A stretch of DNA of 62,372 nucleotides from positions 1-62,372 of the forward strand of contig CALVGZ010000011.1 in the NCBI GenBank assembly GCA_944327225.1, given 5' to 3'. Below are positions 58,665 to 61,498 of this stretch, in pieces (position 1 is the first letter of the stretch; the number at the start of each line of letters is the position of its first letter). The DNA comes from Candidatus Gastranaerophilales bacterium (GTDB lineage: Bacteria > Cyanobacteriota > Vampirovibrionia > Gastranaerophilales > Gastranaerophilaceae). The position numbers were made by a program, and so were the translations under genes. The notes beneath the pieces were generated by a model that saw only the letters and a program-made list of their open reading frames with translations, had not been told where the DNA came from and did not search any database.

Positions 58665-59852
58665 TCATTTAATTCCCATTTTTATAATGCCCTTGCCGAA
58701 TTTTTCTTCAAGTTTATCCCAAGATTTTGAAAGATTTTCTTTTTTAATTGATTCTTCGCCATCAAAAATAGAAATCTGTCTTGTACTCGCGGAAGTTAAT
58801 TTCATGGCACAAAATCCGACAGAACGATAAACAATATCCTTTTTGAACAGTTTATCTAAAATTTGTTTTGAATGTTCAACAAGCTCAAATTCACTGTTAA
58901 CGGGATTGACAAGATTTATTTTAATATCTGAAATTTGAAAATCCTTTGTTCTTAACATAACTGATATACAACCTGTTAAAAGATTTTGACTTCTTAATTT
59001 TTTACAAACCTTATGAATATGAGCATTTAATTCTTTTTGAATAAAATTTTTATCCGTTTGAAACTCTTTAAAACTTTCGCTTCTTGAAATCGACTTTGGT
59101 GCTTCCTGAATTGATTTAACAGGATTAATTGAATTTCCTAAAAGCTCCTGTTTTAAATCTAAACCAACTTTTCCTAAATTTTTCTTTATCCAAATATCTT
59201 CTTGAGATACAAAATCCCAAGCTGTTTGAATTAAATGCTTTTTTAATAAAGCAGTTGTATTTTTCCCAACACCCCAAATTTCGCTTATTAAAGTTGCTTT
59301 TAATTCCTTTTCAATTTCCCTATAACCAATTTTATAGGTTTTATTTTCAATTAACTCCTCTTTTAAAGTTTTTTGAAGATTTTTTGTCTTTTCGCAAGCA
59401 AGTTTAGCTAAAACCTTAGAATAAGAAAGACCCACCGAAACATCAATTCCAACTTCGTTTTTAATATCTTCTACAATTTTTTTAATTATATCCTCATAAG
59501 AACATTTAAAGGTTTTTCTCAAGCCTGTCAAATCCAAAAAAGCTTCATCTATAGAATATATCTCAATATCGGGAGTAAAATCATAAAGCTTATCCATAAC
59601 TCTCTTTGAAATTTCACAATAAAAAGGCAAATTTCCCGATAAGAATACAACTTTTTTGAATTGATTTTTAATCATAAAATAAGGTGCACCCATATTCACA
59701 CCCATCTTTTTAGCTTCATTAGAACGAGAAACAACACATCCGTCATTATTAGATAAAACACAAACAGGCTTTCCTATAAGCTCAGGCTTTAATAGTCTTT
59801 CACATGATACAAAAAAATTGTTACAATCAACAAGTGCTATAACTCTTTTCAT
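58665..59852 (-). CDS. umuC: Y-family DNA polymerase, UmuC-like
   Basis: A 395-residue translesion polymerase. VIALVDCNNFFVSCERLL holds the first catalytic Asp, LSNNDGCVVSRSNEAKK is the UmuC signature, and YSIDEAFLDLTG holds the second catalytic Asp-Glu pair. The little-finger domain and a C-terminal UmuC-type extension follow. It starts at the last base of the lexA stop codon, preceded by AAGGAAA, so the two form one SOS-controlled operon. No separate umuD is present. Confidence 0.92.
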   Translation of the reverse strand: MKRVIALVDCNNFFVSCERLLKPELIGKPVCVLSNNDGCVVSRSNEAKKMGVNMGAPYFMIKNQFKKVVFLSGNLPFYCEISKRVMDKLYDFTPDIEIYSIDEAFLDLTGLRKTFKCSYEDIIKKIVEDIKNEVGIDVSVGLSYSKVLAKLACEKTKNLQKTLKEELIENKTYKIGYREIEKELKATLISEIWGVGKNTTALLKKHLIQTAWDFVSQEDIWIKKNLGKVGLDLKQELLGNSINPVKSIQEAPKSISRSESFKEFQTDKNFIQKELNAHIHKVCKKLRSQNLLTGCISVMLRTKDFQISDIKINLVNPVNSEFELVEHSKQILDKLFKKDIVYRSVGFCAMKLTSASTRQISIFDGEESIKKENLSKSWDKLEEKFGKGIIKMGIK

Positions 59853-60439
59853 TAGCTTATTTTCCTTGTTATGCCAACTGCCACGCCAAAAATTGATAAA
59901 GAATTTTTAGGACGAAGAATCGGATAATCTTTGTTTTCGGGTTTTAAATAAAATCCTTTTTTATCTTTTTTATAAGTTTTTAAAGTAAATTCATTATCTA
60001 TAACAGCAAGAACAATATCGTCGGGATTGGCAATTGAAGTTTTTTTTATAATCACGTAATCACCGTCAAATATTCCGATATCTACCATTGAATCTCCTGA
60101 AACTTTAAAAACAAACGTAGAAGGACTGTTTATATCTAAAAGCACATCAAATGAAATCCTTTTTTCAATTTTATCATCCATAATTGATGCAAAACCTGCT
60201 TTAACATAACTTGAAACAAGTTTTGCACCTAAATATTTAGGATTTATATAAAAATATTCATTATCTTGAATTAAAAAACCTTTATTTTTTAAAATTTCCA
60301 CATATTGTTTTATTGAATTCTTGGATTTATAACCAAATTCATTTTTGATTGTCTCGTAACTGGGTAAAGCTTTTGTTGAAAAAAACTCTTTAAGTTTTTC
60401 AAAAAATTCTCTTTGTCTTTCGGTTAATTCATTTTTCAT
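59852..60439 (-). CDS. lexA: LexA-family SOS repressor
   Basis: A 195-residue repressor. Residues ~1-60 are a winged helix-turn-helix (LTERQREFFEKLKEF; SYETIKNEFGYKSKNSIKQY). The self-cleavage site A81-G82 (YVKAGF) and the serine-lysine dyad S117 (SGDSM) and K154 (FTLKTYK) are intact, so it should be cleaved upon RecA activation. The DNA-binding domain distinguishes it from UmuD, although it might also serve the UmuD role for the polymerase it precedes. A 24-bp palindrome overlaps its -10 element, indicating autoregulation. The mRNA is predicted leaderless. Confidence 0.92.
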   Translation of the reverse strand: MKNELTERQREFFEKLKEFFSTKALPSYETIKNEFGYKSKNSIKQYVEILKNKGFLIQDNEYFYINPKYLGAKLVSSYVKAGFASIMDDKIEKRISFDVLLDINSPSTFVFKVSGDSMVDIGIFDGDYVIIKKTSIANPDDIVLAVIDNEFTLKTYKKDKKGFYLKPENKDYPILRPKNSLSIFGVAVGITRKIS

Positions 60440-60444
60440 AATAA

Positions 60445-60468
60445 TATTATGTACATTTGTACATAATA
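60445..60468. promoter_or_regulatory. LexA operator overlapping the lexA -10
   Basis: A perfect palindrome: arms TATTATGTACA and TGTACATAATA around TT. The core GTAC-N4-GTAC matches the reported cyanobacterial LexA box rather than the CTGT-N8-ACAG type of enterobacteria. On the minus strand the -10 CATAAT (60446-60451) lies within it, six bases from the ATG, so a bound repressor would block transcription directly. Confidence 0.85.
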
Positions 60469-60636
60469 AGTCAAGTAAACTTTAAATGTATTTATATTGA
60501 AAAAAATTTGAATTACTGTAAACTTTTGTAAATTTATTTAATTAAAAAAATAAAAAATAGCAAAAAGAAAAATTCACACACATTTAAAAGCATGTAAACT
60601 CCTCTATAAACTCCGTAATACTAATTCTATCCATCA
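60469..60636 (+). ncRNA. Candidate small RNA between lexA and the Gly-rich gene
   Basis: The 243-bp gap contains no ORF, yet ends in a strong plus-strand terminator (60637-60671) although no plus-strand gene lies between it and the divergent lexA start. A short untranslated transcript is the simplest explanation. The exact 5' end is not visible; the GTAAACT element occurs at ~60523 and again at ~60595. Coordinates are the outer limits. Confidence 0.3.
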
Positions 60637-60671
60637 CGGCTTAATTTGTTCACAAATTAGCCGTTTTTTTT
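60637..60671 (+). terminator. Strong plus-strand intrinsic terminator without an upstream gene
   Basis: CGGCTTAATTTGT pairs with ACAAATTAGCCG (12 pairs, one bulge) and is followed by eight T residues. Read on the minus strand there is no T run after the hairpin, so it does not serve the minus-strand gene that ends at 60683. Confidence 0.75.
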
Positions 60672-60682
60672 ATGGAAAAGAA

Positions 60683-61498
60683 TTATAACTCATCAACCAA
60701 CTTAGAATCAGATTCCATATTAGATTTTAGAGTTTGTCTTACAATGTCTGCTTGAGTATCAAGCATTTTACAAACAGTTTCAATATTTCTTACTTTATCT
60801 TCCAAAATAACGTCAGCATTGTTTGTAATGTTGCCTGTTATATTTTGGTAAGCAGATAAAGCAGCAGAGCCTGTTCCTTGCATTAAGTTGCCGGCTACTA
60901 TTGCTCCAAGCCCGAATTCACCTGCATAAGGTGCTAAAGCCTGCAATATTCCGCCCCAACCGGAAATTAAGCCTGCAATAGGGAGTACAATGTTTTGTCC
61001 AAAGCCAAAACCGCTTGTAGCTCCAGTAGCATAAGACGCGGTGTTAAGAGCCGCTAATCCCGCGGCAGAAACGGCATAACCCGTTGCCATACCTGCAGCT
61101 CCGCCTGTCGGAACTCCGTCTTCTCCAAAACCCATCGAAATGCTTGCAGCACCTGAAGGGAAACCCGAATAACTGGATAAACCTGATACACCAAAAGAAT
61201 TTGTACCTGAATCGAGATAAGAATTTGTCGAATAATTAGGTGACCAATATGAAGTTCCGGGAATATTCATCATTTGAGATCCGCCTAATGTCGGCATAAA
61301 ACTTGAAGGAGAAAATAAATTAGCTAACTGCCACAAAAAACCGCCGGCAGTACCAAATCCTGAACCTGTAGAAGTTGAACCTGAAACGGTTAAATCTCTT
61401 AACCTATCATAGGTTTCATATAATTCAGCTTTTGCAGCGGAACTTGCAGCTCCATATTTATTCGCAATTGTTAACTCGTGGTCATTCTTATAAGACAT
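60683..61498 (-). CDS. Gly/Ala/Ser-rich protein of unknown function
   Basis: A 271-residue protein without a signal peptide. Residues ~1-35 are helical and charged. The middle is dominated by Gly, Ser and Ala with many G-x3-G spacings, and a weakly hydrophobic core at ~135-215 (AGMATGYAVSAAGLAALNTA; LPIAGLISGWGGILQALAPY) could enter membranes. The C-terminal ~45 residues are a charged amphipathic helix (DKVRNIETVCKMLDTQADIV). Helix / glycine-zipper hydrophobic core / helix is seen in secreted pore-forming or translocator proteins, but no family is recognised. GAGG precedes the ATG. Confidence 0.6.
   Translation of the reverse strand: MSYKNDHELTIANKYGAASSAAKAELYETYDRLRDLTVSGSTSTGSGFGTAGGFLWQLANLFSPSSFMPTLGGSQMMNIPGTSYWSPNYSTNSYLDSGTNSFGVSGLSSYSGFPSGAASISMGFGEDGVPTGGAAGMATGYAVSAAGLAALNTASYATGATSGFGFGQNIVLPIAGLISGWGGILQALAPYAGEFGLGAIVAGNLMQGTGSAALSAYQNITGNITNNADVILEDKVRNIETVCKMLDTQADIVRQTLKSNMESDSKLVDEL

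What the first reader, a model, noticed from the sequence alone, without database searches (positions are those of the whole stretch)
60445..60468. Cyanobacterial-type LexA box on the -10 of a lexA-umuC operon
A 24-bp perfect palindrome with GTAC-N4-GTAC core covers the -10 and adjoins a leaderless start. The core agrees with reported cyanobacterial LexA sites, supporting the placement of the organism near Cyanobacteria. LexA directly coupled to UmuC with no UmuD raises the question whether cleaved LexA doubles as the polymerase partner.
Basis: partly seen in the sequence, partly recalled or inferred. Interest (0 to 1): 0.55.

Follow-up and report, generated by a model that had tools for sequence, protein, structure and literature searches.

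The report
Self-cleaving LexA/UmuD-like repressor beside umuC
In gut relatives of cyanobacteria, a protein built like the damage-response repressor LexA, but with a UmuD-like second half, appears to switch off only its own operon with the error-prone DNA polymerase UmuC, and in some lineages the DNA-binding half has been lost, leaving a UmuD-like protein behind.

Summary
The box is real, though not a perfect palindrome: 11 of 12 pairs match, with an exact GTAC-N4-GTAC core. It covers the -10 and ends 5 nt before the lexA ATG. Symmetry alone is not beyond chance, but position and core recur across the genus. The organism is a Gastranaerophilales (Cyanobacteria-related), yet the core is no marker: most sister genera have AGAC-N4-GTCT, some GAAC-N4-GTTC, at the same promoter position. 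The core changes together with repressor residues 39 and 44. In 28 genus genomes the box (at most 1 mismatch) occurs essentially only here: a one-operon switch, not an SOS master regulator. This is the genome's only S24 protein, so there is no separate UmuD. Its C-terminal half lies between LexA and UmuD, slightly nearer UmuD. In three independent lineages the DNA-binding half and the operator are gone while the C-terminal half stays next to umuC under purifying selection. I infer a dual repressor/UmuD, related in logic to UmuDAb and HdiR. Against this: UmuCs of this order lack the known UmuD'-binding tail (0 of 106), and many relatives keep UmuC with no partner.

The parts
60445..60468 (.). 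operator: inverted repeat, 11 of 12 pairs, core GTAC-N4-GTAC
   Evidence: same place in relatives
60469..60474 (-). -35 element TTGACT (predicted)
60446..60451 (-). -10 element CATAAT (predicted), inside the operator, 17-nt spacer
59852..60439 (-). LexA/UmuD-like repressor gene, 195 aa, start codon 60437-60439, stop codon included
60242..60439 (-). LexA-type winged HTH, residues 1-66 (Pfam match 3-59)
59852..60196 (-). fragment after the predicted cleavage bond A81-G82 (residues 82-195), S24 fold with S117 and K154
58665..59852 (-). umuC, 395 aa, overlaps the repressor gene by 1 nt; lacks the C-terminal UmuD'-binding tail

Best explanation
The locus is a self-contained, DNA-damage-switched polymerase operon. 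A protein of LexA architecture (LexA-type winged HTH plus UmuD-like S24 half) binds as a dimer to the inverted repeat on the -10 and represses only its own leaderless repressor-umuC transcript. RecA filaments trigger self-cleavage at A81-G82. That frees the promoter and at the same time yields a 114-residue C-terminal fragment that acts as the UmuD'-like partner of the co-translated UmuC. Shown by computation: the architecture, the conserved operator position, the nearly unique box per genome, the association of repressor residues with box core, and the HTH-less derivatives. Inferred: binding, cleavage, leaderlessness and the partner role. My separate odds: autorepression through this box about 0.9; C-terminal fragment as polymerase subunit about 0.6.
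For: Operator position: centre at -17 or -18 in 67 of 78 HTH-bearing loci. Core and recognition-helix residues 39/44 agree in 75 of 75 loci where both could be read. Box (at most 1 mismatch) once per genome in 23 of 28 genus genomes, at this gene; twice in 3, never in 2, and these two are the genomes whose repressor lost its HTH. umuC within 400 nt downstream in 83 of 88 loci. Only S24 protein in the genome; RecA present. C-terminal half scores 96.7 bits as UmuD and 87.6 as LexA. HTH-less derivatives in 10 of 88 loci, three separate losses on the UmuC tree, each with loss of the box, 9 of 10 keeping AG and GDSM, dN/dS 0.059-0.179 within the HTH-less group against 0.055-0.153 in HTH-bearing controls.
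Against: UmuCs of this order lack the C-tail known to bind UmuD' (0 of 106 full-length; E. coli and six class-level UmuCs beside true UmuDs have it). Many relatives keep umuC with no S24 partner nearby, so UmuC may need none. The repressor-box association rests on three changes only and is not significant as independent events. G046 has a perfect second box upstream of recA, so the regulon is not always one operon. The C-terminal tree is unrooted and 123 columns long. L048 has lost the cleavage Ala and may be decaying.
Confidence: 0.6

Rival explanations
1. Pure local repressor: the protein is only a LexA/HdiR-like switch for umuC. Its C-terminal half serves dimerisation and self-cleavage, and UmuC works without a UmuD subunit.
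For: No UmuD'-binding C-tail in 0 of 106 order-level UmuCs, that is, none has it; a large clade has umuC without partner.
Against: The S24 half is kept beside umuC, with its cleavage site and dyad, after HTH and operator are lost and is under purifying selection; a repressor without DNA binding would have no use.
Confidence: 0.3
2. Canonical LexA: master regulator of an SOS regulon, with umuC as one of many targets and a cyanobacterial-type box.
For: Whole protein passes the NCBIfam LexA cut-off, 115.2 against 110.95 bits; whole fold matches LexA first; in one relative, G046, recA also has the box.
Against: Only one box in this genome and one per genome in 23 of 28 genus genomes; no GTAC-N4-GTAC core in the fetched recA region of G000; the second exact core lies inside an RNase Y-like coding sequence.
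Confidence: 0.08
3. The palindrome is a chance feature of AT-rich promoter DNA.
For: Symmetry of this degree is expected about once per window by chance.
Against: Its position stays fixed while the core changes in step with the recognition helix, and it is lost each time the HTH is lost although L043, L131, L132 and L137 keep the 6-nt gap between -10 and ATG.
Confidence: 0.02

Closest known systems
UmuDAb of Acinetobacter (PMC4807011, passages; PMC8565304, passages)
   Same: UmuD-like S24 half with an added N-terminal DNA-binding part, size of LexA, represses its own and umuDC promoters, restricted to error-prone polymerases; in some species in one operon with umuC.
   Different: UmuDAb has no HTH that domain searches recognise and uses a co-repressor DdrR; here the HTH is a recognisable LexA domain, the box has a 4-nt core spacer, and HTH-less derivatives exist.
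HdiR of Lactococcus and Streptococcus (PMC8565304, passages)
   Same: RecA-cleaved S24 repressor of itself and a umuC; minimal SOS.
   Different: HdiR groups with phage repressors; here the DNA-binding domain is LexA-type.
LexA of Cyanobacteria (PMC3091678, passages)
   Same: LexA architecture; GTAC-N4-GTAC core in this genus.
   Different: Cyanobacterial LexA controls recA and other genes; its C-terminal half scores clearly as LexA, not UmuD; outer bases of the box differ.
UmuD/UmuD' of polymerase V
   Same: S24 gene overlapping umuC; UmuD' (recalled: residues 25-139, 115 aa) is about the size of the 114-residue fragment; the g26 HTH-less proteins are 130-147 aa against 139.
   Different: HTH attached in most lineages; UmuC here lacks the C-tail that binds UmuD'.

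Membership tests
LexA (architecture) | LexA winged HTH plus S24 domain | tested here: met
   Pfam PF01726 32.5 bits (cut-off 23.7) and PF00717 85.7 bits; TIGR00498 115.2 bits against 110.95; fold
LexA (architecture) | cleavage bond and Ser-Lys dyad | tested here: met
   A81-G82, S117, K154
LexA as SOS master regulator | boxes at recA and other repair genes | tested here: not met
   one box per genome in 23 of 28 genus genomes; none near G000 recA
LexA as SOS master regulator | binds the box and is cleaved with RecA | not testable with these tools
   needs purified protein
UmuD | passes the NCBIfam UmuD cut-off | tested here: not met
   94.8 bits for the whole protein, 96.7 for the half, cut-off 110
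UmuD | no DNA-binding domain | tested here: not met
   LexA HTH present; but absent in 10 of 88 related loci
UmuD | in operon with umuC | tested here: met
   1-nt overlap; within 400 nt in 83 of 88 loci
UmuD | UmuC partner has the UmuD'-binding C-tail | tested here: not met
   0 of 106 order-level UmuCs
UmuDAb-type repressor | UmuD-like S24 half with N-terminal DNA-binding domain | tested here: met
   UmuD likeness of the half is moderate, 96.7 against 87.6 bits
UmuDAb-type repressor | represses its own promoter and error-prone polymerase genes | tested here: inconclusive
   operator position only; no binding data
HdiR | phage-repressor-type HTH | tested here: not met
   Pfam finds LexA_DNA_bind and no phage HTH

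The most novel reading that the evidence does not exclude
One protein is both the operon's LexA-type repressor and its UmuD: a single self-cleavage turns the promoter on and makes the polymerase subunit, so no umuD gene is needed. In three lineages the DNA-binding half was shed together with its operator, producing a UmuD-like gene anew.
Probability: 0.55. Interest if true: 0.65.

Novelty: new variant of a known kind. Interest (0 to 1): 0.5.

Why it matters
It offers a natural series (full repressor, HTH-less derivative, partner lost altogether) in which one can ask whether LexA-like and UmuD-like functions are separable in one S24 protein, and how repressor and operator change together. It would add a third independent case, beside HdiR and UmuDAb, of an S24 protein dedicated to an error-prone polymerase, in bacteria for which my searches (open-access library only) found no paper on their LexA or UmuC. 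It also corrects the use of a GTAC core as a marker of cyanobacterial affinity.

Tried and rejected
Chance symmetry of the palindrome: not excluded by counts alone, rejected on conservation. Regulon by exact core: the second hit lies inside an RNase Y-like coding sequence (the name RNase Y is mine, read from the sequence, no family search was run on it). Further sites were checked in context: of 12, six lie inside ORFs (G045, G010, G174, two in G059, G039); G160, G191 and G027 lie between ORFs without a convincing promoter position; G009 and G267 lie about 40-60 nt upstream of ORFs and were not pursued; G046 lies upstream of recA. Class-level f12 LexAs: TTGTACNNNNGTACAA is perfect at lexA in 5 of 5 genomes and once elsewhere (G101); with one mismatch allowed there are 29 sites against 29 for the reversed control. 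Statistical proof of covariation failed for lack of independent events: 2-3 pairs, all concordant, p 0.5 at best. Rfam gave only chance microRNA matches. Phage and plasmid searches gave only relatives below 60% identity.

Rows dropped before counts: from 95 repressor loci I left out 5 class-level LexAs and 2 contig-end cases (L046, L138), giving 88. In one search, 78 count as HTH-bearing; L144 and L146 were placed there by hand because their helix did not fit my pattern, and L162 has no box, which leaves 75 loci with both helix and box. From the UmuC tree I left out L104-L109, L111-L113, E. coli and two short rows. Of the 124 positive genomes not all were fetched. In L039 my script's start codon is probably too far upstream; the promoter-spaced ATG downstream was read by eye.

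Full report
What is in the window. The 24 bases at 60445-60468 are a near-perfect inverted repeat (11 of 12 pairs) with an exact GTAC-N4-GTAC core. On the minus strand a -35 (TTGACT) abuts it, the -10 (CATAAT) lies inside it after a 17-nt spacer, and the ATG of a 195-aa protein begins 6 nt after the -10. umuC follows with a 1-nt overlap. A 24-mer this symmetric is expected about once per window by chance, so symmetry alone proves nothing.

Which organism. The closest named records, at 65-83% protein identity, are mostly Candidatus Gastranaerophilales metagenome assemblies, several with titles naming gut samples. The assembly G000 has 1.73 Mb and is 99.78% complete.

Protein. Pfam finds a LexA DNA-binding domain and an S24 domain. 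The cleavage bond A81-G82 and the residues S117 and K154 are invariant among 20 aligned relatives. The AlphaFold2 model has a winged HTH and an S24 fold with a poorly predicted linker and cleavage region (mean pLDDT 76; residues 74-100 under 50); Foldseek ranks LexA first. The C-terminal half alone scores 96.7 bits for UmuD against 87.6 for LexA; E. coli LexA's half scores 87.1 against 178.4, a cyanobacterial LexA's 48.8 against 108.5, a class-level UmuD 107.5 against 67.3, and an HTH-less g26 protein 85.5 against 92.3. In the PDB sequence search the UmuD chain of 8gmt scores 64.3 bits over this half, the LexA C-terminal fragment 1jhc 51.3. A tree of 68 C-terminal halves (123 columns) separates 12 LexAs from all others (98/99) and also nine UmuDs from all others (98/98). 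The Gastranaerophilales proteins lie between, 40 of 41 of them with the UmuD of G111 (97/82). The tree is unrooted, so UmuD ancestry is suggested, not shown.

Conservation and neighbourhood. A homologue was found in 67 of 116 relatives, among them all 28 genus members, and in 124 of 383 order members at 1e-12. Of 88 order-level loci examined, umuC follows within 20 nt in 49 and within 21-400 nt in 34; it is 1790 nt away in L164 and not seen in four (L129, L146, L154, L156), whose fetched stretches or contigs may be too short. Class-level LexAs of family f12 were not beside umuC in the fetched stretches, and G111 there has a separate umuD next to its umuC.

Operator and repressor change together. 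A core lies upstream in 77 of 78 HTH-bearing loci. Recognition-helix residue 39 is His in all 35 loci with an (A/G)GAC core; Ser39 with Trp44 goes with GAAC (5 loci; two of these have a GTAC right arm); Ser39 with Lys, Arg, Ala or Val44 goes with GTAC (34) or GCAC/GTAC (1). The numbering equals that of E. coli LexA, whose DNA contacts include Ser39 and Glu44 (PMC3091678, passages). Related sequences share these states and the tree needs only three changes, so this is a strong association with weak statistics.

Regulon. In the 28 genus genomes the 18-bp box with at most one mismatch occurs once in 23, twice in three and never in two; every genome with a match has one at this gene, and the reversed control pattern occurs in three genomes. 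In 25 AGAC-type genomes the box is at this gene in all 25, with nine further sites against 47 for the reversed control. One of the nine is perfect: it lies upstream of recA in G046. So the usual state is one operon, with one probable extension to recA.

HTH loss. Ten of 88 loci code for an S24 protein without HTH: L039, L043, L048 and seven of genus g26 (L131-L137), 130-147 aa apart from the uncertain starts of L039 and of a few others. On the UmuC tree these are three separate losses, each with loss of the box. L043, L131, L132 and L137 keep the gap of 6 nt between -10 and ATG. Nine of ten keep AG and GDSM; L048 does not and may be decaying. dN/dS of pairs within the HTH-less group is 0.059-0.179, in HTH-bearing controls 0.055-0.153, with dS near saturation in several pairs. 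The S24 half is therefore useful without DNA binding, beside umuC. I take this as the best evidence for a UmuD role.

Against it. The C-tail of UmuC that binds UmuD' (PMC6511836, passages) is present in E. coli and six class-level UmuCs with UmuD-like neighbours, but in 0 of 106 order-level ones, including those beside HTH-less UmuD-like genes. A large related clade has umuC with no S24 partner nearby. Either the contact differs, or UmuC here needs no partner.

Known kinds. UmuDAb and HdiR already show S24 repressors dedicated to error-prone polymerases (PMC8565304 and PMC4807011, passages). This locus works like them. It differs in its recognisable LexA HTH, its place in one operon with umuC across an order, and its HTH-less derivatives. 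I found no paper on LexA or UmuC of this group (open-access library only); searches for LexA/UmuD fusion wording brought UmuDAb, HdiR and other LexA papers, judged from listings apart from those read.

Noticed in passing
window 60592-60671, + strand (5' stem perhaps from about 60578): Candidate small RNA: an intergenic element found in 27 of 28 genus genomes at 87-100% DNA identity although the neighbouring repressor proteins are only 62-84% identical. About 46 nt beginning ATGTAAACTCCTC are identical in all aligned copies, followed by a strong terminator hairpin and T run. It has two AAACUCC motifs, no Rfam match, and the layout recalls cyanobacterial Yfr1 with its ACUCCUCACAC (PMC2190773, passages). 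It is often, not always, next to this operon. Possibly more interesting than the box.
   Followed up: partly
L261 (G046:C41), 636-653: A perfect AGAC-type box about 150 nt upstream of recA in one relative: probable growth of the one-operon regulon.
   Followed up: partly
L171, L196, L197, L199: Some S24 proteins of the wider phylum that resemble UmuD carry an N-terminal extension (GRPxGxGKYGEPTK...RLP) that matches no Pfam family in the two tested, L171 and L196.
   Followed up: partly
L084-L103, L114-L119: umuC without any repressor or UmuD-like neighbour in many genera of the same family: an error-prone polymerase apparently free of this control.
   Followed up: partly
window 60683-61498, - strand: 271-aa Gly/Ser/Ala-rich ORF next to the operon with no Pfam match.
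   Followed up: no
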